Notes under the pieces: model-generated
Seen by the model: the letters and a program-made list of their open reading frames with translations, nothing else
Told to the model about the DNA's origin: nothing
Database searches by the model: none
Made by a program: the position numbers and the translations under genes
NCBI RefSeq assembly: GCF_040954835.1
Contig: NC_090704.1
Location: forward strand, 44,148,979 to 44,212,978
Direction of reading: 5' to 3'
Length of the DNA: 64,000 bases
Source: Lepisosteus oculatus
Taxonomy: Eukaryota; Chordata; Actinopteri; Semionotiformes; Lepisosteidae
Shown here: piece by piece, positions 2,458 to 63,945 of the stretch
How positions within the stretch are numbered: position 1 is the stretch's first letter
How the letters are laid out: each line of letters starts with the position of its first letter

Positions 2458-5400
2458 CTGTCACAACAACACAGGGCAGAGCCAACTTACTTTACATCTA
2501 TCAGCTGAGGTCACTTGGCTTCTTTTATTTTTTGGCCATTAAGAAATAAATCTGGCAAGGTCTTTGAAGTCAAGAATTTATGAAACAAAATGAACACACA
2601 AGACACAAAACTAGCATTTCTGGACTACTACATACAGTTTTAGCGTGTTCCAAATCCCAGATCAGTGTATCTCACCTCCCACAGCCAGTTCCCAACATTG
2701 CCCCATGATAATACGGGTAGACAGAAATCTTGATATGGAAATGTTTGCAGAAGTTAAGCAATTCTCCACCAGGTAGGGACACACTTTAAACTGATGCTGA
2801 GACAACCTTTGGTACCAATCCAAAAATACATCCAAGCACAAATACAAATGACAAACTTTGCCTGGCAGGTTTAAAAGAAAAAACAAATATTTTCTCAACC
2901 ATGAAAATATGCCTCATTTACCCTAAATTTAAGCTACGTTCCTTCAGTAACCCAATAGGTTTCAGCTCATCAGCAAAGATTCCAGGTGGTCAAGACTGCT
3001 TGCTCACTCTTGCCTTTTTGCTTCTTTGTGGTCTGTCTTAAATACAGCATTCGTCACATGGGATTCTGGCTGGCAAAATACAAAAAACTTCCTTCATTCT
3101 ACGATTATCAATAAACTGAGGTCTGCCCATCTGATAACTGAAGCAACACAACATCTAAAATCTGTGACCTCAGCTGAATTCATAGAATCACTAGTGGTGC
3201 ATGAAGTGGCTTCATTCCTACAGTATATGTAATGCATTTTGGGATCTTTTGGGATAAAAAAAACACTTTATAAATGTAAGGAATATTATAGAGTGACATT
3301 CTGCTTCATGCATTGCATTACCATTACAAGACCAATGTTGATGGGGGATTTTTTCAATGCTGGTGACACTTTATAATAATAATAATAATAATTAATAATT
3401 GCTTACACATATAGCGCGTTTCTGGACACTCCATTCAAAGCGCTTTACAGGTAATGGGGATCCCCTCTACCACCAATGTGCAGCATCCACCTGGATGATG
3501 CAATGGCAGGCATATTGCGCCAGAACGCTCACCACACATCAGCTATTAGTGGGGAGGAGAACAGAGTGATGAAGCCAATTTATAGATGAGGATTATTAGG
3601 AGGCCATGACTGGTAAAGGCCAGGGGTAAACCTGGCCAGAACACCAGGGTACACCTTACTTTGTTCAAGAAATGCCCTGGGATTTTTAATGACCATAATC
3701 AGGACCTTTTTACAGTATGGTGTCCCAGTCACTATACTGGAGCATTAGGACCTACATAGACCACAGGGTGAGCACCCCCTGATGGTCCCACTAACACCTC
3801 TTCCAGTAGCACGTTTTTCCCAGGAGGTCTCCATCCAGGTACTGACCAGGTTCAAACCTGCTGAGCTTCAGTGGGCTGCCAGTGGTGAACTGAAGGGTGA
3901 TATGGCTGCTGAAGTCTGGTGAAAAATTCACGTTCTGCAATCTCAAAAGTTACCACTTTTATCCAAACAACTTTCTCTCTAATCTCTAATCATTCAATTT
4001 TATTTTTTTCAGATGTAGTATTAATTATAATTTAGTCTTTTTAAGAGAAAATTTTCCTTTCGAAGGAAACATTTCCGAACTTCTGCATTTTTGCCTGAAT
4101 TAAAAAAAAATCTAAAGGATTTTGTAAACAGTGCTGTTAAATTAGCATCAGGCCTCGTGGTTTCGGAAGAACTTAAAACTGACAGAAATGCAGACTAAAG
4201 AAAGGCCTGTTGTGTTATATTAAGAATGTAATGTGGTTTTCTGCTATTCTTATGCTAATCAAGAAAAGCTGCATCCAAACCTTAAAGCTGTCTTGCCGAA
4301 GGACCTAAGTATCTATCTGAAATCATTCAGGAAGAACTAAGACTGTATGTGTGCTCCACCTACTGGTCAAAGAGAAACAGGAATATTTTTCCAAGTATTG
4401 TAGGCACAAGGGGGTTAGTATATTGTACTGACTTTTCAAAGGGCTTTTATTGTTCACTTAATTGTTAAGGATGGACAGTGATCATGAAAACCCTTGTCTT
4501 TCAACAAGGGGCTGTTTTCAGGGCCAGTGCATTTCCTTCTTTACTCTCAGAAACAAGAACTGATGTTCCATCAGCCCAGGGAAGGCAACAAAGCAGTGCT
4601 TAGGCTGCCCCGTATCAGAGAGGCTAAACTATGCCATCATCCACAGTACCAACATTAGCATTAAGAGTCATTTTAAGGATCTGTTTTTGATCAAACTTTT
4701 AACCCAAGGCATTTCTTCTTCCTCAAAAAAGCACTTTCTTATTGGCACGGGTGGGCCCAGGGCACATTCTTTCATGTAAAAAGTATTCTTCATCCCCCAA
4801 TCCTCCAACATCAACCACATTAAAAATAAAAAATGCATGCATTCCAGCAATTACATCTCAAGTCTGAGAGGCATAACAAGCACAGAGGCAGAAGCTACAG
4901 TAGAATATTCCGTGTATTCTACTGTGTGATCTTAAGTTTACTGTGGATTTACTGTGGATAGGGCCACAGTACATTTAAGATTAAGACCCATGTAACTCAT
5001 CACACTGGGCTGTTCAGCTGATCGATAGCAATCGACAGAAAAAGGCAACAAACTGAAGAATAAGCATATGCACATCTACTGCTCATGACAGATGAAGAAA
5101 GACCATCCATGCACAAAGTCACACCATTATATTGGATATATAAGCCTTGGTCAGTATTTCCTCAACATTACATTAACATTCCATGCACATGTTCTAAGCA
5201 GGTGTAACAAACACCAACAAATATCACGACAATCACAACTTAAATTAGTACAAAGTTGTGAACACTTGACTATCACCCATGTACCGTCAACACAGTGTTG
5301 AAATTTCGACTCATTTTGCTGCTGTTCTTCAGGAATTCTGATGCTTCTGTTACTAGTTCTGCTTCTATTGTTCTACAACATAATCTGCTCAAAACGTAAA

Positions 5401-12979: not shown

Positions 12980-15900
12980 GTATGCCTGATAAAACAGTGG
13001 CGCACTACATGTGCTTCTCCTCATTTCATTCATTACCAGGATCTAATCTAAGAATAAAGTAAAGAAATTGAAAATATAATATTTCAGCTGTCCAAGAGTA
13101 AACAAGTTTACTAAAATAATGTATTATTATTGTTATTATATTATATATATTAAATTATATATATAATTTGTATATAATATTATTATATGATTATATCATG
13201 TTTTATTACATTATTTTTATTATATATTATTTTAGATCTATGGCTGAAGTAAAGAAGCTTTGTGTCTTTGGAAACCTGGTGAACTTATTCATGTTTAGTT
13301 CAGAGTTTTAGGAAGAGCTTATCTAATTAAGATACCAATGCAAATATCTTGTTATACCTGAGTAACTAAACTGGTAATCGTTTAATTTCATCAGCTTTAT
13401 TAATAGTACATTAAGAACTGAGGCAGAATAAGAAACAAGGTTTCTTAAAGTGTTCAGCCCTTAGTGTCTGTATCATATGTTTTCTCCTAGGAAGTGGAAA
13501 GAATGTGCTAAACATTCCAATTCTGACCATTTCGGAATCAGACAACTGGGAAGTTAGTTCATCCTCCACAATGAAATACTGGCAATTCGTAGACTGGGAA
13601 AAAATGGAGCCTAAATCTGCCCTAAACTACCAGAAGATCTTACAGAGTGACTGCAAGCAACTGAAGAGCATGGCCAGAGCAGGTTTTTGGTCCACAAGCC
13701 ACACTCTGAGAGCCAAGGCCTACCACCACATCATCCATGGCATCAGCTGTAGGTCTGTCACCCCAGACAGGGAGATCTACCAGCAGCTCTCTGAGAAACT
13801 GTTTGGGAAGAAGAAAACAAGCACTCACCCTTTCCCAGAATACATGGAGAATGGCGCAATCCCCATGTACTGTCTCAGCAAGACTGGGGTCAACTCGGTC
13901 AGGAAGATTCTCCTTTGTATCGCGGCACATTTCCCCGATATCACACACTGCCCAGTCCTGCCGGCCCTGGTGTCTCTGCTTCTGCATTTCAGTGAGGACG
14001 AAGCGGAGTGCTTCCACAGTGTGTGCAGACTCATTGCTTACAATGACCCGGACAAGCGCTACATAGACCAGACGTTCCTCGCCCACAGAGCCTCCTGCAT
14101 GACTTTCCGAGACCTCGCCAACAAATACTGCCATGGTGCCCACAAGCTCATCGCCACCTCCAACCAGAGTCTGTTTGACATCTACTCAGATTGGATAATG
14201 TGGATCTTTGGTGCCGGGCTTCCATTTGAGTACGCCATCCGGGTCTTGGATGTGTTCCTGCTGGAAGGCTACAAAGTACTCTACCGGGTTGCTCTGGTTC
14301 TGCTCAGTCTCTACAAAGGTTCTGTGCCCTCCACGCCCTCCCACATTGCCGATATCAGACAAGACATCATGAGCTTTGTAGGGAACATCTCTTGCCATAT
14401 CACGGTGGACAAGCTGCTGGAGAAGGCCTTCAGCATCCGCCTCTTTTCACGCAAAGAAATCAACCTGCTCTTGTCTGCTAACATGAGCGCCCTCCTGCAG
14501 AAGGGCATTAGCATTCATCAGAAGAGGTGAGAACAAGAAAACACAAAGATTTTTGTTCAAGATGTTTTGAGGGTTTCTCAATTAGTTCAATTAGTTTAAG
14601 TCTCAAGTCCGGTGAAAATACGAACGCTTTCCTGAAATGTTAATGGTACATTTCTTTTTAGCAAATGTTGTGACCATCTTATGACTTGCAAATAGTATTA
14701 TTCAGTATGTTTTCTTTTGCTGCTATACCCTGTACAGGGTAAAAACAGACTTGAGTTTTTCTGTAAAGTTTCCTTTCTGGAGAATTTGGGACTTTGTTTT
14801 TTTTTAATTCTGTTTTCTGTAAATGATTGTAATTCACCTGGTACCGGGGAGTGGAGCTCTGGTTTAGCTGGCTGGGATGTTCTGAAGAACCAAGATTAAA
14901 TTCCAAAATATGCAGAGCTGCACGTTACACTTTTTTTCTGCTCTGTGATCGTGCAATATCATATTCCAAATTGTTTCAGATCTGGATTCAGTCCTCTTAC
15001 CAACATGCTGGTACTCTCTCCCCACAGGATGTCCGTACATCTAGCAGTGGATCTGGATAACTTCAGCTCCAGTATTGTCACTGGACAGGAGATGAGGATG
15101 GTTTGGTCCTGGATTCCAGAGCGCTTTGCCCTGTTCCAACCCATCATGCTGTTCACCACCAGTGAGCATGGGCGCAGCCTGACGTCGTGAGTAGTCCCAG
15201 CTCTTCCTGGATGACAGCGTTCACAGATAAACGAACTCCAATCTCAAACACAACCCTTTAAAAAATGGTGGCTTATTAAAAAGTATGGGAATCTTTCAAA
15301 TCAATCTGTCTCCAGTAAATAAATATGCATAGATACAGATCAGTCCAGTATCTTTATCACTAATTTTAAAGGAATAGATTAGATTCTCTGATTTTCATTT
15401 TCTTTTTTAATTTAAAAAGGGAGTGCACCCTGTGGGAAATGTTTCCCCTCAATCGAAGTTAAACTCCTTCGCGAAAACATTGCAAAAGCAATAAAGCATT
15501 TCATGGAACAGAGCAGTTTTGACAAAATAATAATAAAAGTACATTGATGTATTCTGGCTTGGGGATAGCAAACTGAGCCATGAATCATAGGCCAATGTTG
15601 TCATTGTTTAATGCACATGAAGCAAGTTCCATTTCTGAAAACAATGCTTCCTCTATGGGTGGTCCATGCCTTTAAGGTTATACTACAGTTATTGTACTAT
15701 TTGAAATATGTTTTGAATTTTAATAGGAAAAGGGCCCATTGTGATATTAATGACTCTTTAACTCATAAATCCTTCTGCTTAAAGCATGACCATTTGGAAA
15801 ATAATAGCTGAGAATGTATGAAGATGCAGATTATAAGCTTTGCAAAAGACAGCTGCTGTTACGCTCGTCTCAAATCTGCATGACTGTCCTTTAGTACACT

Positions 15901-19857: not shown

Positions 19858-20023
19858 CCCCAATAATAATGTGAAAAATGTAGTGAATAGAAGAAGTTGT
19901 TATTATTATTTATTCGTTTGTTTGACGTTTTTAACAACGGTTATTCACAGTTCAAAGTATTGTAACGCAACGGGGGCTCAGGCGGGCGCCCTTGCCGCAT
20001 TAGGTCGGCCCCTGCACCGTCCG

Positions 20024-20078
20024 GGGCTCGAACCCGGGACTTCCGCGTCTCTCTGCAGCGACCTAGCCCCGTGAGCCA
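20024..20078 (-). promoter_or_regulatory. tRNA-like Pol III A/B boxes within the LTR
   Basis: A-box-like TGGCTCACGGGG at 20067-20078 and B-box GGTTCGAGCCC at 20024-20034. The latter lies within the T-arm-like CCGGG-TTCGAGC-CCCGG. The flanks do not pair as an acceptor stem, so this is a tRNA-derived promoter relic and not a tRNA gene. The same motifs recur 298 bp on, in the other LTR. Confidence 0.6.
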
Positions 20079-20135
20079 AAGAGAGATCTCTCTACAGCCC
20101 AGTAGCTGTGGTCCTGCTATCACAGGGAAGGGCGG

Positions 20136-20143
20136 TGACGTCA
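20136..20143. promoter_or_regulatory. CRE palindrome in LTR
   Basis: TGACGTCA inside the 12-bp palindrome GGTGACGTCACC, a full CREB/ATF site. Repeated at 20434-20441. Confidence 0.55.
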
Positions 20144-20196
20144 CCCGCTCTGGTACGCCGGCTCTTACACAGCGCCTGTCGGCCGTAAGCGTTACA

Positions 20197-20209
20197 CTCT
20201 CCCCCGCTT
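20197..20209 (-). other. Polypurine tract of the miniature element
   Basis: Minus-strand AAGCGGGGGAGAG sits directly against the start of the 3' LTR. Confidence 0.7.
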
Positions 20210-20241
20210 AAATCGCCGTCCCCGGCGAAGGGCTATCCCGC

Positions 20242-20257
20242 CCCGCTTCTGACACCA
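20242..20257 (-). other. Primer binding site, tRNA-Leu type
   Basis: Minus-strand TGGTGTCAGAAGCGGG. The complement CCCGCTTCTGACACCA differs by one base from the tRNA-Leu 3' end CCCACTTCTGACACCA as I recall it. Confidence 0.75.
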
Positions 20258-20258
20258 A

Positions 20259-20494
20259 TGTAACACAACGGGGGCTCAGGCGGGCGCCCTTGCCGCATTA
20301 GGTCGGCCCCTGCACCGTCCGGGGCTCGAACCCGGGACTTCCGCGTCTCTCTGCAGCGACCTAGCCCCGTGAGCCAAAGAGAGATCTCTCTACAGCCCAG
20401 TAGCTGTGGTCCTGCTATCACAGGGAAGGGCGGTGACGTCACCCGCTCTGGTACGCCGGCTCTTACACAGCGCCTGTCGGCCGTAAGCGTTACA
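20259..20494 (-). repeat. 5' LTR of the miniature element (right copy)
   Basis: 236 bp. Carries on the minus strand an A-box-like TGGCTCACGGGG (20365-20376), a B-box GGTTCGAGCCC (20322-20332) about 44 nt apart as in tRNA genes, and CRE palindrome TGACGTCA at 20434-20441. Confidence 0.88.
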
Positions 20495-20639
20495 GTATAT
20501 TTAATTACTGATTGTTCCCGTTGGCTTTATTTTGATTGCTCAATAATTGTGTTTCATCTGAATGAGCTCAATGTTTATATATCCATTATGTGCTGCACAG
20601 CATATTGGTGTGGTTAATCTGTGTACATATTTTTGACCA

Positions 20640-27100: not shown

Positions 27101-30100
27101 TTTGTACAGTATGTGAGTATGTGTGGGTACCACCAGGGGGAGACAGCAGATTAAAAAAATGAAGTGGATTGGGCAATCTAGCATTTGAAAGCATAACAAT
27201 GTGCTATTATAAATATAATTTCATTTAAAAGGAAAGAAAAAGAGGGGTTATTATTCATCGTCTTTTTGCAGTGAAGTCTGAATGCTTGCTGAAATGTCGT
27301 TGCATTTTAAATAGTTTTTAACTAAAATGGTACTCTGATTGTTCTTCCAGTGGCTCCTCCGATCTCTTTGCTACTTGCTCAAAGAATGACATAAGAGTGT
27401 GGCACACCGAGACCTCTAAAGAGCTTTTACGCATAACTGTGCCTAACATGACGTGCAGTGCTGTGGAGTTCATGAGAGATGGAAGGAGTATTATCAGTGG
27501 TAAGGTTTTTACTTAATTTCACACTTGCTTTAACTCTTCATTTAATAAGCTTTTGCATATGCTGTCTTGTTAATGTAATGAATGTCATAAAACGTCTGTC
27601 ATCTAAAAAAAAACGATGGAAGCCAAACTTCAAGCCATTAACATAATGTTGTACCCTATTCAACAGTGTACTTCATGTGTTGCCTTCTTTGTTTCCATAA
27701 GGTTTTTTTTCAGTAATAAAAGGCCCAATTAGAAGTGATTGAGTTTTTCTTACTAAAGTGTATTGATCATCTGAAAGACTTTTGATGTGCTGGGAGGGTG
27801 TAAGAACATAGAAAGCACAGACTACAAATGACAAAACGTGTCATTTGACTCCATCCAAAAAACGCCCACCCAGAAGAAGAGGGAATGGAAGATGTCATGT
27901 ACGATAGGTGTCATCGAGTCTGGTGAGATAACAGTTGTTTCTTCTCTCTCAGCTTGGAATGATGGGAAAATCCGGGTCTTCACCCCAGAAAGTGGCAAAT
28001 TGATGTTTGCTATTAACAATGCGCATAGCATGGGTGTGACAGCCCTTGCTACAACCAGTGACTGCAAGAGGATTGTGAGCGGAGGAGGAGAGGGGCAGGT
28101 AAGCCATGTGCTGCGTTTAAAAATATTTAGTCACTCTTCAGCATCGCCTTTTATTGCAAAGGACATTTTCAGTAAAGTCAGATTTTGCTTATGGGTTAAT
28201 AGATGTTTTCCCATCTACTTAATACCTACTCTTCAAAGGAATTTTAAACATCTATACCGTTTCCTGTCGTCACATGTGTTGCAATTAACTTCACCGTTCA
28301 AAATGTGTCACCTACTGTGTATACTGGGAGCATACAATCTTCTTTTCATTTTTCTTGCCAGTCCAGATCGTTGGACGTACTGAAGTGTTCTTTTGTGTTC
28401 AGGTGCGGGTCTGGGAAATCGGGCAAGGCTTCCACAGGCTGGCCGAAACAATGAAGGAACACAAGTCCACCATCTCCTCTATAAAGATCAAAAAGAACGA
28501 CAAGGAGTGTGTCACTGCCAGCTCAGATGGGACTTGTATTATCTGGGACCTGGTGTAAGTGCCAGCGTGACTGTCTGTCCCTCAGTTCAGCTGCTTTTCA
28601 TCTCGCGTTTTCAAATATAATTCAGTTTTTCCTCCTTTTACACTACAGAATGTTTCTCTTTGGTTGGTGTTGTTGGCACAGTAAGCTGCAGTCACAATTT
28701 AATTTTATCCATTAGTGCCATGTGTCAGTCCATCCTGGCTGTGAGGAAAATACCCAAGTTCTTTATTAAGTGTGGCTTAAGTATTTGTGTAACAACAAAA
28801 ACTGTAGCACAACAGGGTGAAAATATTTGCTCGTGTGTGACTATAGGGCAGCAATATGCTGTTGTCAGAAGAAAAGTAAACTGCTCAATGACACACCATA
28901 CAGTTGGTTCAAAGTGAAAATAAACAACATGATTTAAATATCAGAAACAGAAAGATTTAATGCTTAACTGACGATCTTGAACCGGTTGTTTGTTATGAGA
29001 GTGTGCTGTTGCATGACCTATGCTTCCAATTCAAAAATATCAACTGTTTTATTGGATTTAACCCAAATTCAGTGTGTGTACTTTATGCTGCTGAAGTACA
29101 GAGCTCAAGCACTTGTCATGGTCAGAATCTAATTTCTTTTTAACTGAGGCATGCAGACAACTGTATCGTGGGATGCATTCAATTTATACCCAAAAAATGT
29201 TTTTTCAGCTCTCAAAGACTTTTTGTTTGGAGCTGTATTATGCCCTTCTGCCTAATGTATATGATAATGTATACTGTATGTGCCGCACCTGATTGGACAA
29301 GAGTCAGTGTCACTTTGCCTCTGCACACTTTTAGCTACACCATAAGCCATAATGCCACTTAGGTAGCATTTCTGAAACAAATACAATCTGAACAGCAAGG
29401 TGGGATACTGTATGTTTTAATTGCATTGCAGTCTCAATGTTAAAACATGGTGAAATAAAGCTGGTACTGTATGTCCACAATTAACATGATGGATGAGTAC
29501 CAGAAGGAGAGTGGACTATTTAAAATAAATATAGCATGTATTTCTTTAATTGCCAGATTAAACAATAACAAACCTGTAAAATCTCAGTGGTATATAGCGG
29601 CGATTTACCATTTTGTTTTTTCTCATTTGTACTGGTAGCCGAGTTGTGAGGAATCAAATGGTGCTGGCGAACACCCTGTTCCGATGTGTCTGCTACCACC
29701 CAGAGGAGTTTCAGATAATCACCAGTGGCACAGACAGAAAGGTAAGGCTGCAGCTGGACACTGGAATGCCAGAGCCATGTTCTTCAGTACATCGCATGGG
29801 CGGTACTGAGTGCCCCTGAATCTTGGTCCTATTATAGTGCACTTAAATACCTTTTGATATAAATTACTGCTTTATGCAGCACCTTTTTTTCCTCTAAATG
29901 TCCCTTTATTAGCCTTGTATAAGATGTTCTGCTCCAATGATTGCGCCATTAATTTCAGTGAAGAGAACCTTGTGACACTGTAATAAGAACGAATGATGAA
30001 GCCTGGGCTATTGCAAAACTCGCTAGGGTAGATCTCTTTTATCAAGGAGGTAAAGGGATGAATAAAGAAAGTACTTCTTATATCATCTGAGCTGACATAT

Positions 30101-33100
30101 TCCAATGTTCTTTTTTGAATTGCAAAATTGCATACTATATTTTGCTTAATGGTCTGTAAAAACAGAAATATAAATTACAGTGGAAAAAGTGAAAAGTAGG
30201 TATGCAAAATAAGGAAAAAAGGAATCACATAATAAAAACTAATAACAAAATATCTCAGAGTTTGATATTGATTTTAATTGTTAGTGACATTTAACATGAA
30301 TTGTATTGCATTTCTGAACAGAAATTGCCAGGTTGCTTACTTTTATATCAAAATAACTCTTTCTTTTATATTGTTTGTATTCGAGCCTTACATCAAAGGT
30401 CATTTAAAAGTGACACGTTCATTTCCTGTTTTTCTAAACACAGAAAACCTATAAACCATACTATTTTGGCATTCCTGAATAAATATTTTTCACTTTAAAT
30501 CAGCTTTATCAGCCTCATAAATGCAGTGGTGTCATGAACACATACCATTTAACAACATCAAAGACAAATTGATTAAATAAGAAATCATCACCTGTTTATT
30601 TCACGACCATCTTAACTGAGATGTAGAATTTTCCATCTCACTCTTAGCAGCTGATTAGCAATCAGTAACAGGATGGCATGCTGGGTCTTCATATTGATGC
30701 CGCTGAATAGAACTTTGCTTCACACCCTAATATGGACAGCAATGATATCTTCTGAGTGGAAGAATGCCAAAATCACCATCTGCTAGCTGAAAACATAGTT
30801 ACGCTGCCTGGTTAAGGACAGACAACTGCTAAAATTAAATATGTTTAGTGGCGATCAAGGTGCTACAATACACTGTGTACTGTGTGCACAAAATGTAGAG
30901 ATCATGAACAGATTGCAAATGCCAGAAACTCCAGAGGTTAGTAAATTTCTGTGATAATCCTGAAGTGATCATGTAAAAGCATGCAAGGCTGACTGGTCAT
31001 ACACTTTAATAAGGCAATCGTATATAAAATTTCAGAATTGGAAGAACTCCTGTCATTAATTTATTTCAGAGAATTTGGCTGACTTTCTCTAAGTTAGGGA
31101 GAAGCATGGTGAGTTTTTTTTGGCTTTTTTGCCTTTGAGCTCCAGAGTCTTGGGTTTTATTCTGGCTTTGCAACGAAGGCTTGACCTAAATAAATATTAT
31201 TCTAATTATGGAGCAGGGGCACAGAAACATTTTTGAAAGTCGTTATTAATTTATTAGTGGTTTTGATTTATATTAATTAATCCGTGAGTGGCCTGATTTA
31301 ATTATAATAATAATAATCATAATAATAATAATAATTGCTGTAGTAGTTCAGGTGGGTAGCTGCATCAGCATGTGTAGGCTGCAAAGGAACAAGTAACAGG
31401 TTTATTCCATGCTGAAAAAAAGAGGAAAGAAAACAGGTTGTGGAGCCTTCTTCAGGTGTGAGGTGTGAATTATTGCTTACACTTACATAGCGCTTTTCTG
31501 GACACTCCACTCAAAGCGCTTTACAGGTAATGGGGATCCCCTCCACCACCACCGGTGTGCAGCCCCACCTGGATGATGCGGCGGCAGCCATAGGGATCAA
31601 ATGCAAACCAGACACTTATGCTGTCCGTATAGAGAGCAGGCAGACAGTAACGATCACAGTTACTACCAGTAAAAGTTTTTCCACGTAATGTGCACCACAC
31701 TCACAGCAGACCATTAGCAGTTGGCTGTTTCCTACTATAAGAAACACATACCCCCTACTATTCTTTTTCTATGCAACTGTTTTGTACGTTAAATAGTATT
31801 TTTGAGAACAACGTGTGTTCCATATATGAGCAGGGTTGAATGAGGGTGTGTACTGTATTTGATTGTGTTGTTACACTAATTAGAAGTGTGGGCACACTTA
31901 TAATTGCCATTTAATTATCTATATTTGCTTCTGTTGAAGCCCTTACATGTATAATACATCTCATGAAGGTTGTTTAGATAAATATCAGTACAAGAAACAA
32001 AGATGTTAGTTTTCCTTTTTGAGTGTATTACTACTGCAGAGGGTTAAATACTTGACTTGTCTCAGCTAATCCTGTTTCAGAAATACATTTTTTTAGCCCA
32101 GGATTTGGGGTTTAACATAAGTAGCTGCTATTTATTTATATCTATCCACTCTTAGTTCTTTGTTTTTAATTAACAATCGTGTTGAACTAATAAGAGAAGT
32201 CATCAATTGTCATGGCGATTGTGTTAATAATGTGCTATAAATATCTTCAAATAGCAATTGATGTTGTAAGACCTAGCTGGAAGGAGACAGCTGCCAAACC
32301 CCAGAAATGATTAGCTCTCATTCTGAGGCATAAACATATTTTTTTTAACTGCTGTGCATTATGTTTTGACAGACGGTAGTGGTGCAAATTTACATATAGA
32401 GGACTTATTAGGAGAATATCAAGACAGTACCATAACATCCACAAATGAGCTGGGTCCTTTCTAGAATGCATGAGGCAATTGGAGTCATGAGTTCACTATA
32501 CAGTACCTACACATTATAACAGGACGAGGAGAACAAGTAAAATCCTCTAGGGTACTTAACGTCAGATGAAGAAGAAAAAGTGTAGTACATACCATCCTGA
32601 ACGAGGTAATTATAAGATAAAACCAAGATGTTTTAACATTAGTATTGGTTATCAGAGTACATGATTTGTATAATACAGAAGAAGTAACATTAATCAAGAC
32701 AACAGGAGAAATGCATCTGTTTAATTTTAATTTGGCCATATATCCACTGTTAGCTTCGTGCCTTTTCGGAATATTTACAGCTAAGTAAATGAATAACAGA
32801 TCTGGAAGACCTAGGCCTCAACATGTAATACTTGTCCCCTTTTATTTCTGTACCTCTTCATAGATATGATTTAAATCTGTGAAATTTAAAACAGTCTTTA
32901 TTTCTTTTTTTTTCTTTGTAGATTGGATACTGGGAAGTGTTTGATGGGTCTGCTATTCGGGAATTGGAGGGCTCTCTGTCTGGATCCATTAATGGCATGG
33001 ACATCTCAAGTGATGGCAACCATTTTGTTACTGGTACAGGACATAAATTATGTGCCAATAATATCAGAGGGGCACACCTTTTCATTGCTGTTATCTGTAG

Positions 33101-36939: not shown

Positions 36940-38900
36940 TTTTACCGTGTCAACCTGACGTCAGCAGGCAGCATCGCCGGCTGTCGCCGCGAGTAGCACT
37001 GTCTAGCCCTCCGCTCCCTCCACGGCGACGACGCGCCGTCAACACAACGGCAGCGGCTTTTTTTCTCTCTCCTCCCAAACTAAACCAGGCTAATAAGATT
37101 CAGAGTGGGAGGGCAGATCCGCCAAACAGAAACACACACCGGCCCCGGGAGTAGAGAGAGAGAGAGAGGAGGGAGAGCTGGAGCCAGTTATCTTTGCGAG
37201 GCAGGGAGGGGGAGAGAAAGAGAGAGAGAAAAGAGCTCGGGAAAGGAAGCAAGTGTGCGGCGCACAAAACATGGAGTTACAGACAACTCACCTTTCCAGT
37301 CATTCCAGGTGCTGCCAGCGACTGGGATAGCAATGCGCGCAAGAGCACTGAGGCATCATCGGAATGTCTGAGGGGTGTCACACATGCACACCCGCCTGTG
37401 TCGCCGTGCTGCTGCAGTCCGCCTCTCTGTCCTGTAGCGTGAGGAAGAACTTCATTACTCCGAGGCGGACAGGTGAGGAGCGCCGCCCCGGTGCCCGGCT
37501 CCGGCGTTGCTTATTCTCGTTTCTGAGCGTCAGGCGAGCAGGGGGAGAATGGATGACCAGGGGGAGGACAAACCGAGGAAGCACGAGAAGAGCAAGGCGC
37601 CCAAGCGCAAAGAGAAGAGGCGCAAACCTGGAAAGCTCTTCAGGAGGAAATCGCTGAAGTCGGTGGGGAATTTCATGAACAGGATCTTAAAAACTTTAGG
37701 CACCCTGGCTCACTTCGGCGATGTCAGCCCGCCCGATGCCGAAGACGACGACGGGGGGTTCCGGGATGGTACACCTTGCACGTTGAGTGCCCACTCAGGA
37801 AACCTTAAAGATGACATTCAGGTTGGGGAGAGCGCCGTCAAGAAGAGCGTGACACTGTCTTCCCACGGATCTATAAAGGAAAGGCTTTCTTGGAGCTACG
37901 GGGATAAAACGCCGGGTGTACTGGGTTTGAAGAATCACGGCAACACCTGTTTCATGAACGCCGTCGTTCAGTGCCTGAGCAATACGGACCTGTTCGCCGA
38001 GTACCTCGGTTTGGAACAGTACAAATCGGATTTCTGCCGGAGGAAAGTTAATGGGATTGTGAAAAGTGAAGATCTGCCCCACGCGAGGGGTGAAGTCACC
38101 GAGCAGCTGGCGTCGTTGGTCAGGGCGCTGTGGACACTGGAATATACGCCACAGTTGTCCGTTGAGTTCAAGGTAGGTCACCTGTGGCTATAGGATATAC
38201 CTACCCGTCCCTTTTATGCGTGCGTGTGTGAGTGAGCGTAAACGGCAGATTTACTGCCCAGATGGGGAAAGGGGGGAAAGTCAAAACGAAAAGCTGGACC
38301 ACAGACGCAAGATTTTAACGCGACCACATCGAGTGCAACTTTGCAGTTTGGCTTCAGTCAGCCCTGCCATGAGAGCGACATCTTGAATTAGTGGATCGGG
38401 GCTCGCAGTCGATTCGTAAAAGCGCCCAGCGACCCGTTGACAGTCAGCTGATTGGAGCACGGCTGTTTAAAGATAAACGCTGTTTTTTTTTAAAAAAGAA
38501 AGTGTTTTACGCAGGCACGTCTCCAGCAGGGCGCGATGCGATTATTCCTGTTGCAACAGGTCTCGGAGCCCGCGCCAGGCGCGGCGCTGATTACAGTTCA
38601 AACAGCGACCGCCGGTGCCTCTTCCTCGGTCCTGCTTATCTCGAAGCCCACCGCCACTTCCGCGAGCGAGCGCAGGTAACCCGGTGGGAGGAGCTCGGGC
38701 TCGTCCACGCCGGCCTGGGGGAGCTGTCTCCTGGGCTTTCAATGCAAACGCGCGGCGGAGACCGGAGGTCTCGCCAGGCTGCGGTTTCCTTCGCGCAGGA
38801 GCGTCTTTCTGCGGCGTCCCTTAAGGGAACCGGACAGTTTGGGATGTTTGGAGGAAGGGAAGGCGCGACTATAAACACAGTTCGGGTCGACTGTGGCTGT
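36940..38900. promoter_or_regulatory. usp43: usp43 CpG-rich promoter and first-exon region
   Basis: CpG is frequent across this span and rare in the AT-rich flanks. It includes GA-rich runs at about 37155-37240 and surrounds coding exon 1. The start of transcription is not defined. No TATA box at a convincing place. Confidence 0.6.
37549..38172 (+). CDS. usp43: usp43 coding exon 1 (Cys box)
   Basis: 624 nt, exactly 208 codons, ending TPQLSVEFK. Donor GTAGGT. Confidence 0.95.
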
Positions 38901-41900: not shown

Positions 41901-44900
41901 TACAATAAGACTTTCACAAGACCTTCAGAAAGAATGTACCAAGTGTGTCTCCTGGCCTGGGCTCATCCCACCTGCCACTTTCCACACACTCGGTATGTAG
42001 GATCCGCCTGTTCTCATGCTCGGAATCGTTTACTTCCCAGCTGCTTAATATTCGGGGTAGGTTCCTCTCAGTGCTCTGCTCACAGAATGCTAATCAGACC
42101 TTAAAATGAATGGTAGTGTCTTGATATGCGGCGTTGGACTGGGAGGAAGGTCGCTGGGTTTCTGCTTTCGGTAGATTGCTTCCCCAGCGTTCATTTTCGC
42201 TTCGCGTTTCGCTCCTGGGGGCCAAAAAATGGGATTTGTCCCGTAGCTCTGGAAACAGAGGTAGCAGCAATAACAAAAAACCCATCTCGACGACATTTAG
42301 ATCATAGGAACGAACTTCAACAAGCTGGTGCATTTCTGTATCTTTAAGTTTTCTAAATCCCCTCGGTGTAGTCAGTTTGTACTAGGTTAGGCAGAGCTTT
42401 GGCGCTGCCAGGTCTGAAATGGGTGTGATTTGTTGGGATTGTTGGTAGGCGGTTATCGCTGTAAATTGATGTCTTTGGAAAGAATAGCAAAATCCCCATG
42501 TGTGTGCTAACAGCCTGGCCCACAGTATGTGCAGCATCATTTTAAATCCTGTCCCTACCATAGTCATAAGCAAGACATTTGCCCTTCTATGATTGTAAGG
42601 GTTAGGCATTTAATAATAAGTAATGCAGACAGAGAATTACTAACAACTGTTTCGAATGTTTACTCTTGGCAAATGCCACATTCAGGCAAATTCACTTGAG
42701 TCACTTTGTGTCCTGAAGATGCCAGTTTGCGGTCGAGTCTCCAGCTGTTTCCTTTGTATTGACGTGTGCTTCCCAAACCATTCCTCAGTGCCCATAGTGG
42801 CGAGACTCTCTAGTGTCCTCGGTTTAGAAGGGTGTCCATTATACCAGCAGCCTTGACATTTCTTAGTGGTGGACATTGGAATGAAATGTGGTAGATTGAG
42901 GTGTTTGCAGATTATTTCATAATCATCTCCTAACTTGTGAAGGTCAGAAATCATTTGTCTGCAGTCCCTAAAGAGCTCTGTGTCATTCACCATGCTAACC
43001 TGCTACTGCTGTCTCCCTTGTGTCACCTCTTTTTATACCCTAGGGAAATGGGAAACCTTAAAAGGTATCTATATTGTGTCAGAGGCTTCCACTGCACTTC
43101 TGAAGAGCAGGGTGTTACTGTAAATCTTGATTTTGTTGGATTTTATTTATTAATGAATACCTAGAGGTACAGAAATGTACTCTATGAGCATAACAAAATG
43201 CTCATTGCAACGTTATGACAATTACAACAGAATATTTTTTTATTTTCTTAGTAACATCTTTCTGTGAAGATTTCTTACTCCCATTTTATTGGGGGGTGTA
43301 AATAAATGTTAAGAGCATTGTAAATCCCCTTACTCACTTTGCTTTCCTTGGCTTATATGACATCATGTACTGTATTCTGTTAGAAGAGGACAGAAACAAT
43401 GATATACAACTGTTTATTTAATGGAAATCTTCTGTCAGTACAATACGTTTCTGTTCTTAAATGAAATGAAACATCTGCTCCCCACAGAAAACCCTTTTGT
43501 GTATAACCTCTTAGACTAAACGTAGCATTTGGTCAACTTTTTTTTTTCATCTTGCAATTTATTTTTTAAAAAGCCCTGGTCTTAGTGTTCATCCAAATAA
43601 TATCTTCGAAACGAAGCGTGCTTTTCAGTGCGTTCGGAGGAAGAAGGCTGGTGGGCCCCAGACACTCAGGCACGGTTGGTTTCAAGCTAGATGTGGATTT
43701 ATCAAGTTCATGACCTGTCGGCGCGCGCGGTCTGCAAGTCTGAGCCGGCCGTTCTTCTTGTTGATGTCAGTGGGAGGGTGAGCGTGCAGATCTCCGAGAG
43801 AAATTGTTCGAGAAATTTCTGGACCCCTCATCCCTGCTTTGAACTCTTCTGTCCGCCCCCCAACATGCATTTCGCTTTTGTCACGTTGATCCATCACTTG
43901 CCACGTTACGGGTTCCGGGGGGACAAGGGGAAAAAAAAATGGCCCAGCGCGTTTACCCTTGAAATGTCGCCGCCTTGCAGTGTGACGTCTCCACCTGGTT
44001 GATTCATGGGTTATGAAAGAGGCAACGGCAGCAGAGATGAACTGCGACCCCGAGCCATGAAAGACTCCCGTTAATGAGAGCATGTGGCAGGAGTGCGCCG
44101 GTTGGCCTTCCCCTGGAAGAGCACTCCTTTGATTTTATTGGGCTCTGGATACGAAAAGGCGGGTGGTGCTCCTTTGAATGACTGAGAAGAGAAAAGGAGC
44201 GCGGTCGTTTATTTTGCCTTTGCTTCCTTCGGAATCAATTGGAGGGCAAGAGCAGCCGTGTCCTGTCTAGCGGGCCTCTGGCGAGCCGTCTTGAGGACTC
44301 GCCGACGCCACCCGCTGGTTCCGTGGAGGCTGGTATTGTTTTCCCCTCTCTGGTCGCCTTCCCCTGGCCATGCCAGTCCGCAACGGGGAGCAAGCCGTGC
44401 CGTGTGAAATGTCCGCACCATTGCTTGGCTTTGACGCGAGGAGGTCTGCCGGCTTGAGAATGGCAATCTTTTTGAGCGGCCATGTCATTAGTGTGTCTCG
44501 TTATGTTTTTTCCGGCTAAGGAAGCGTCTCTTCACTGCTCGTTTTAGCCACTGAGGACCCCCGCAGTGCGCGACCCCTCCTCGTGCGACTGTCTGCAGAG
44601 TAAGATGACAGCGCTCCTCCTTTACAGAACCTGCGAGAGGGAGAGGAATCCTGGGTTTGGATGTGTGCCTGACCATGCATGAAGCAAAAGCTGTTTCTGT
44701 TTCATTTTTAGTCGTCTGCGGAGCATGTGCGCAGATTTCACACCAATAGGGAGATGTTTAAAGAGACTGTCTTTTTTCCTTCCTCCACAGTGCTTGTGAG
44801 TGGTGTACAGACAGGTGCTGCTGTGCCTGGCAAAAAAAGAAAAAGTAACAGTAGAAATTAAAATGTTGGAAAAAGAATCCTTCTCCTTCCGTTCATAACA

Positions 44901-63669: not shown

Positions 63670-63945
63670 AATTGTGGCTCTGTGGCTAAGGATCTGTGTC
63701 TGTGGCTGGAAGGTTGCTGGTTTGAATCCTGCATCCGGCAGAGGAATCCTACTCCGCTGGGCCCATGAGCAAGGCCCTTAACCCCATTTATATGGGGTGC
63801 CATATAAATAGCTGACCCTGTGCTCTGACCCCAAGCTTCTCTCCCTGTCTATGTGTCTCATGGAGAGCAAGTTGGGGTATGCGAAAACACAAATTCCTAA
63901 TACAAGAAATTGTATATGGCCAATTAAGTGATCTATCTATCTGTA
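63670..63945 (+). repeat. tRNA-derived SINE
   Basis: Head GGCTCTGTGGCTAAGGATCT (A-box region) and GCTGGTTTGAATCC (B-box), then GAGCAAGGCCCTTAACCCC and GTGCCATATAAATAGC, and a simple-repeat end with ATCTATCTATCTG. Confidence 0.7.

What the first reader, a model, noticed from the sequence alone, without database searches (positions are those of the whole stretch)
19961..20494. Miniature LTR retrotransposon whose LTRs carry a tRNA-like Pol III promoter and a CRE
Seen: two 236-bp LTRs with TG..CA ends, one visible difference, 62-bp interior, tRNA-Leu-type PBS, PPT and GTAT duplication. Each LTR also has, on the element's own strand, A-box-like and B-box motifs at tRNA spacing and the palindrome GGTGACGTCACC. 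Known: TRIMs are LTR elements without coding regions, and plant Cassandra TRIMs carry 5S rRNA Pol III promoters in their LTRs. Inferred: this is an animal counterpart that uses a tRNA-derived promoter, recently active because the LTRs are nearly identical. I do not know of a described vertebrate family with this design.
Basis: partly seen in the sequence, partly recalled or inferred. Interest (0 to 1): 0.75.

Follow-up and report, generated by a model that had tools for sequence, protein, structure and literature searches.

The report
Tiny retrotransposon with tRNA-like promoter
A 534-base "parasite of a parasite" in a vertebrate genome carries a tRNA-gene-like promoter in its repeated ends and apparently moves with proteins borrowed from a larger element; the basic design was published in 2024, but many copies here are mirror-image fusions that seem to record where its RNA begins and how its DNA is copied.

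Summary
The window holds a 534-bp TRIM on the minus strand: 236-bp LTRs (one difference), 62-bp interior, tRNA-Leu-type PBS, PPT, GTAT duplication, perfect B box, loose A box, CRE. The design is not new: Kojima (2024) described Helenus, TRIMs with tRNA-derived LTRs, including vertebrate families with 4-bp duplications; the Helenus features tested here are met. The host genome adds facts. (1) The family is large and young: 1,796 LTR hits; 9 of 28 canonical LTR pairs identical. (2) The likely partner is a Gypsy-type element with the same PBS, an unrelated LTR and long open gag-pro-pol frames; recombinants join the two. (3) CRE, A box and B box keep fixed spacing, and the DNA from CRE to the expected start is nearly invariant, as in 7SL/EBER-type Pol III genes. 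(4) In the sample least biased for this, 10 of 57 structures are head-to-head fusions of truncated LTRs, 7 of them centred on LTR 104-117, where a Pol III start is expected. Over all samples 25 of 28 carry ordinary 4-bp duplications, and 8 of 22 typed arm pairs mix subfamilies. I read them as integrated dimers of minus strong-stop cDNA joined at the RNA 5' end. I found no precedent for point 4 in the searches made.

The parts
19957..19960 (.). target-site duplication GTAT (left)
20495..20498 (.). target-site duplication GTAT (right)
20259..20494 (-). 5' LTR, 236 bp, TGTAAC...GTTACA
   Evidence: LTR position p lies at 20495-p
19961..20196 (-). 3' LTR, 236 bp, one difference from the 5' LTR
   Evidence: LTR position p lies at 20197-p
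20197..20258 (-). 62-bp interior without a coding region
   Evidence: exact PBS core in 82 and PPT core in 87 of 90 complete interiors
20241..20257 (-). primer-binding site TGGTGTCAGAAGCGGGG, tRNA-Leu type (tRNA end recalled)
   Evidence: first 16 nt also directly after the LTR of the Gypsy-type element (L121, L122)
20197..20205 (-). polypurine tract GGGGGAGAG
20434..20441 (-). CRE TGACGTCA in the 5' LTR (LTR 54-61); second copy at 20136-20143 in the 3' LTR
   Evidence: kept in 115 of 123 complete LTRs
20378..20391 (-). 14-nt palindrome AGAGAGATCTCTCT (LTR 104-117), inferred RNA start; second copy at 20080-20093
   Evidence: centre of the head-to-head fusions
20365..20376 (-). A-box-like TGGCTCACGGGG in the 5' LTR (LTR 119-130); second copy at 20067-20078
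20322..20332 (-). B box GGTTCGAGCCC in a 5-bp T-arm, 5' LTR (LTR 163-173); second copy at 20024-20034

Best explanation
A Helenus-type TRIM (TRIM with a tRNA-derived, Pol III type 2 promoter in the LTR), mobilised in trans by a Gypsy-type element of the same genome. Proposed cycle: RNA starts near LTR 104-108, about 12-15 nt before the A box, helped by a CRE about 50 nt upstream (inferred from spacing, conservation and junctions). Pol III crosses the T4-free element and ends in flanking DNA, so R runs from about 104 to the LTR end (inferred). tRNA-Leu primes at the PBS; partner RT, integrase and particles copy and insert the cDNA with 4-bp RTAY-type duplications (duplications and partner shown; use in trans inferred from shared PBS and recombinants). 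When two minus strong-stop cDNAs fail to transfer, their 3' ends, which are palindromic because the palindrome sits at the RNA 5' end, anneal and prime each other. The product has U5 ends on both sides, TGTAAC...GTTACA, and integrase inserts it (structure and duplications shown; route inferred). Longer arms come from RNAs with more than one PBS (tandem copies).
For: Family: 1,796 A-box-region hits, backward control 0; 701 LTR-PBS junctions. TSDs, flank-nonredundant: canonical 28 of 28, solo 16 of 17, tandem 5 of 6, head-to-head 25 of 28 complete. PBS/PPT 82 and 87 of 90; CRE-to-A-box spacing 65 in 109 of 111; A-to-B 44 in 110 of 110; mean non-majority per column 0.007 (LTR 52-63) and 0.005 (64-103) against 0.035 (1-51), 0.111 (173-200), 0.019 (201-236). 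CRE would lie at -50/-43 for a start at 104; 7SL -50/-43, EBER -51/-44, vault -53/-46 (PMC7279448, passages). Partner: 173 LTR-PBS-gag junctions; 22 of 93 listed gag-pro matches lie in frames of 1,600+ aa with no stop in the match; protease, RT and integrase; its LTR shares no BLAST match with the TRIM LTR and has AATAAA. L123 joins partner-LTR end, TRIM interior, TRIM LTR and gag; L046, L124, L125 are further chimeras. Fusions: 10 of 57 structures in the A-box sample, 7 of 10 centred on the palindrome; 18 of 29 overall; 7 of 11 offset ones still have an arm ending at 100-115. 8 of 22 typed arm pairs are from different subfamilies, so two RNAs. The CRE palindrome gives 0 centres at <=1 mismatch against 19.
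Against: No transcript data. A box is loose in the TGGCTC subfamily (2 mismatches). The palindrome itself is no better conserved than the LTR average (0.029 against 0.030); the full 14-mer is exact in 26 of 136 LTRs, its 12-nt core in 106 of 123. Centred fusions fix the RNA 5' end only to somewhere within the palindrome. 4 of 11 offset fusions have no arm ending at 100-115. 12 of 29 fusions were found by searching for the centre and 7 came from a PBS set that I picked for lacking exact A-box hits. No TTTT is expected in 68% of shuffles (1358 of 2000), so T4 absence is weak evidence. Pfam recognised no Gag.
Confidence: 0.8

Rival explanations
1. The tRNA-like stretch is a passenger from an old SINE; the TRIM is transcribed by Pol II, with the CRE as an ordinary Pol II enhancer element.
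For: CREs occur in Pol II promoters (general knowledge); no cloverleaf; loose A box; no Pol III terminator in the element.
Against: No TATA-box or poly(A)-signal match in the LTR; fixed A-B and CRE-A spacing; fusion centres where a type 2 Pol III start is expected; B box GGTTCGA in 114 of 123 LTRs. The partner's LTR, by contrast, has AATAAA and no B box.
Confidence: 0.15
2. The head-to-head fusions arise by snap-back of a single minus strong-stop cDNA rather than by pairing of two.
For: Self-priming of minus strong-stop DNA is described for HIV-1 (passage in PMC4668388); 14 of 22 typed arm pairs are of one subfamily, and one has identical arms over 111 nt (L099).
Against: 8 of 22 typed pairs mix subfamilies; arms differ more than canonical LTR pairs (Mann-Whitney p 5e-4, 25 against 28, though ages are not matched and samples are selected).
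Confidence: 0.2
3. Fusions come from rearrangement, nested insertion or assembly error after ordinary insertion.
For: Nested and segmentally amplified copies exist: L111-L119 share one outer flank.
Against: One 4-bp duplication frames the whole fusion in 25 of 28; the same centre recurs at sites with different flanks; the equally good CRE palindrome is not used.
Confidence: 0.05
4. A tRNA-derived SINE dimer rather than an LTR element.
For: Tandem-looking structure and tRNA-like stretch.
Against: TG...CA ends, 4-bp duplications, PBS and PPT kept, solo LTRs with duplications 16 of 17.
Confidence: 0.01

Closest known systems
Helenus (TRIMp3), animal/vertebrate families, Kojima 2024, PMC10886601
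   Same: TRIM with tRNA-like A and B boxes in the LTR, PBS and PPT, 4-bp duplications, Leu-type primer, tandem arrays, Gypsy-type partner suggested by the PBS
   Different: Not mentioned in the searched main text: CRE/CREB/ATF, palindrome, inverted, strong-stop or dimer. Partner recombinants are seen here.
Cassandra (plant TRIM with 5S promoter), PMC10853983 and PMC7215508 (passages)
   Same: Pol III promoter inside the LTR of a TRIM; tandem arrays
   Different: 5S-derived rather than tRNA-derived; the passages seen describe direct arrays, not head-to-head fusions
7SL, EBER, vault and 4.5S RNA genes (type 2 Pol III promoters with an upstream CRE), PMC7279448 (passages)
   Same: CRE about -50, boxes A and B downstream
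   Different: Host or viral genes, not mobile LTRs; that paper says SINE copies lack the CRE. Here the CRE lies in U3 and travels with each copy
HIV-1 minus strong-stop self-priming, PMC4668388 (passages)
   Same: Strong-stop cDNA primes on itself
   Different: Described there as aberrant or abortive cDNA; here the inferred products are integrated with duplications

Membership tests
Helenus | short non-coding LTR element (311-1263 bp) | tested here: met
   534 bp; longest stop-to-stop stretch 86 codons
Helenus | tRNA-derived sequence with boxes A and B in the LTR | tested here: met
   no tRNA fold, which the paper also reports for most families by isotype mismatch
Helenus | PBS and PPT between the LTRs; vertebrate primers His, Leu or Lys | tested here: met
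   the tRNA-Leu end was recalled, not fetched
Helenus | 4-bp duplications in animals | tested here: met
   28 of 28 canonical copies
Helenus | mobilised by Gypsy in animals | tested here: inconclusive
   same PBS, RT and integrase, recombinants; no clade analysis and no mobilisation test
Helenus | sequence similarity to a published Helenus consensus | not testable with these tools
   Repbase and supplements not available
Cassandra | 5S rRNA promoter in the LTR | tested here: not met
   no 5S match in Rfam up to E=5
SINE | A-rich or LINE-like tail and long variable duplications, no LTRs | tested here: not met
Retrozyme | hammerhead ribozyme in the LTR | tested here: not met
   no hammerhead in Rfam up to E=5
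Type 2 Pol III gene with upstream CRE | CRE near -50 of a mapped start | tested here: inconclusive
   position fits if RNA starts at LTR 104-108; the start is inferred from the fusions, not mapped

The most novel reading that the evidence does not exclude
Minus strong-stop cDNAs of a Pol III-driven TRIM routinely pair through a palindrome at the RNA 5' end and are integrated as mirror-image dimers, about one in six insertions in the A-box sample; these dimers form a genomic record of the transcription start and of which RNAs were copied together. Because LTR copying rebuilds U3, such elements carry their upstream CRE with them, which SINEs lose.
Probability: 0.55. Interest if true: 0.75.

Novelty: new variant of a known kind. 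Interest (0 to 1): 0.6.

Why it matters
The fusions would give, from genome sequence alone, evidence for where a Pol III-type LTR element starts its RNA and for co-copying of two RNAs, and would show that a reverse-transcription dead end can be integrated. The CRE placement suggests how a Pol III retroelement keeps an upstream activator that SINEs leave behind. The partner makes the trans-mobilisation question concrete in a vertebrate.

Tried and rejected
Rfam and ARAGORN for a real tRNA: nothing usable. Exact-pattern scans of viral contigs and genome contigs, and blastn against phages and plasmids: no match; these collections are not vertebrate, so the tests are weak. Looking for the partner among 20 PBS-junction loci lacking exact A-box hits: those read clearly were TRIM copies or fusions; L079 matched only at 77-87%. 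The partner came instead from flanks of L023, L046, L097 and L108. A coding element using the TRIM LTR was considered (L046); the other GTTACA-type loci examined are chimeras, and L046's far end was not seen. Pfam on 20 stop-free ORFs of the window: no RT or integrase. CRE palindrome as a fusion centre: 7 sites, each with 2 mismatches, which I take to be an LTR variant.

Full report
What is in the window. Two 236-bp LTRs differing at one base flank a 62-bp interior, with GTAT on both sides. PBS, PPT, A-box-like and B-box motifs lie on the minus strand. The CRE is at LTR 54-61, a 14-nt palindrome at 104-117, the A box at 119-130 and the B box at 163-173. The element is G+C-rich (0.65), the LTR CpG ratio is 0.93 against 0.47 for the window, and this is the only copy in the 64 kb. 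TTTT is absent from the element; the first TTTT downstream begins about 82 nt outside it.

Is it more than chance? The A+B pair is matched by 6 of 2,000 LTR shuffles and by none of 536 window tiles; the opposite LTR strand also reaches 2 mismatches. The tRNA alignment to a panel recalled from memory beats 1,000 of 1,000 shuffles. The CRE in its place occurs in 2 of 20,000 shuffles and anywhere in the LTR in 36 of 20,000. A palindrome of 14 or more occurs in 16 of 1,000. The RNA fold is not special.

The family. The host genome (unnamed, 1.2 Gb) holds 1,796 hits of a 20-mer over the A box with up to one mismatch (backward control 0) and 701 LTR-PBS junctions with up to three. Only 100 rows of each list are shown. 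From I grouped the 100 listed hits by eye into 64 clusters and fetched the first 60 (L009-L068; exact A-box matches, contigs C1-C4). From I took 20 loci chosen for lacking an exact A-box hit (L071-L090). After merging loci with similar flanks, 104 structures became 88; this merging is too strict in one case, because loci sharing the coding element's interior were lumped. Exact 4-bp duplications: canonical 28 of 28, solo 16 of 17, tandem 5 of 6, head-to-head 25 of 28 with both ends complete, other inverted 1 of 1. Of 75 exact duplications, 62 are RTAY and 72 have central TA. Nine of 28 canonical LTR pairs are identical and the most divergent has 26 differences.

Promoter. In 123 complete LTRs, CRE is exact in 115, GGTTCGA in 114 and TRGCTCACGGGG in 118 (the last biased by sampling; 24 of 28 in the PBS set). 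The CRE-to-A distance is 65 in 109 of 111 and A-to-B 44 in 110 of 110. Mean non-majority per column is 0.007 over LTR 52-63 and 0.005 over 64-103, against 0.030 for the whole LTR. A box (0.027) and palindrome (0.029) are not better than average. With a start at 104 the CRE is at -50/-43, the 7SL place; EBER, vault and 4.5SH are within a few bases (PMC7279448, passages). That paper says SINE copies lack this site.

The partner. Flanks of L023, L046, L097 and L108 hold PBS plus a gag-protease frame. In L097 it is open over 462 aa; Pfam finds the protease (PF13650, above cut-off) but no Gag; the CCHC knuckle was read by eye. The LTR-PBS-gag junction occurs 173 times; the listed ones have two LTR ends, GTTACA (42 exact, many on small contigs) and GCTACA. 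Two GCTACA loci (L121, L122) have an LTR without a BLAST match to the TRIM LTR, with AATAAA and no B box; its full length was not determined. RT (7.6e-38) and integrase (1.5e-15) pieces lie downstream in one of them. Of 93 listed gag-pro matches, 22 by my count lie in frames of 1,600 aa or more with no stop in the matched stretch, so unbroken copies exist. GTTACA loci seen with their upstream side are chimeras: L123 reads partner-LTR end, TRIM interior, TRIM LTR, gag; L124 has TRIM LTR-interior-LTR before gag; L125 is an inverted fusion; L046 has one complete TRIM LTR before gag. Chimeras mean that the two RNAs are copied together.

Mirror-image fusions. In the A-box sample 10 of 57 structures are head-to-head pairs of LTRs cut near position 104; 7 of 10 are centred on the palindrome and 3 are offset. 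Over all samples there are 29 (10 A-box, 7 PBS, 12 from searching for the centre), 18 centred and 11 offset. The simplest are 252 bp, two 133-base arms sharing 14 bases, for example L018, L030 and L099, framed by 4-bp duplications. The four without an exact duplication: L023 and L096 run into a PBS, L062 matches 3 of 4 bases, L081 lacks one end. Arms of different subfamilies occur in 8 of 22 typed pairs. In offset fusions, 7 of 11 have an arm ending at 100-115; L062, L071, L083 and L086 do not by that measure (L071 and L086 at 99). Genome-wide there are 68 centres with up to 2 mismatches, backward control 0; at least nine of them (L111-L119) are one event amplified with its flank. The CRE palindrome gives 7 sites, all with 2 mismatches, and none with 0 or 1, against 19 (the patterns are 26 and 28 long).

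How it works. The cDNA made from the PBS ends at the RNA 5' end. If that end is palindromic, two cDNAs can pair and extend, giving a duplex with U5 at both ends. U3 and U5 tips are inverted repeats (TGTAAC/GTTACA), so integrase can use it. Arms with interior and further LTRs fit RNAs carrying several PBSs from tandem copies, which also exist. Shown: structures, duplications, mixed arms, chimeras. Inferred: Pol III use, start site, cDNA pairing, trans-mobilisation.

What is known. Helenus is this kind of element (PMC10886601; abstract, sections 2, 3, 4 and figure legends/tables read). Its main text mentions tandem arrays but not CRE, palindrome, inverted, strong-stop or dimer. Cassandra papers and a Triticeae template-switching paper (passages) describe direct arrays and chimeras; the words inverted and palindrom are absent from the latter. 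HIV-1 strong-stop self-priming is known (passages). Literature searches: open-licence PMC only, so a precedent elsewhere is possible.

Noticed in passing
63673-63930 (+): tRNA-derived SINE-like stretch with A-box-like TGGCTCTGTGGC and B-box-like GGTTTGAATCC 44 nt apart; no second copy in the window.
   Followed up: partly
42685-43002 (-): ORF with a weak Sleeping Beauty HTH match (PF25787, E 1e-3, below cut-off): perhaps a Tc1-type remnant.
   Followed up: no
3394-3514 and 31468-31592: Dispersed repeat, 86.5% identical.
   Followed up: no
27832-28380, 37477-38190, 13415-14527 (+): Host gene pieces: CFAP52 exon, ubiquitin hydrolase start (perhaps USP43, recalled) and a Rab-GAP TBC domain.
   Followed up: partly
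L111-L119: Nine loci on small contigs share one outer flank and one TRIM-fusion-gag junction: a single event amplified with its surroundings.
   Followed up: partly
C11:5428821-5430647 of the host genome (between L096 and L097): A gag-protease piece lies between two bare 252-bp fusions, with PBS sequence at both inner ends, one matching the recalled tRNA-Leu end over 18 bases.
   Followed up: no
insertion sites of the family: Strong target preference: 62 of 75 exact duplications are RTAY, 39 of them ATAT.
   Followed up: partly
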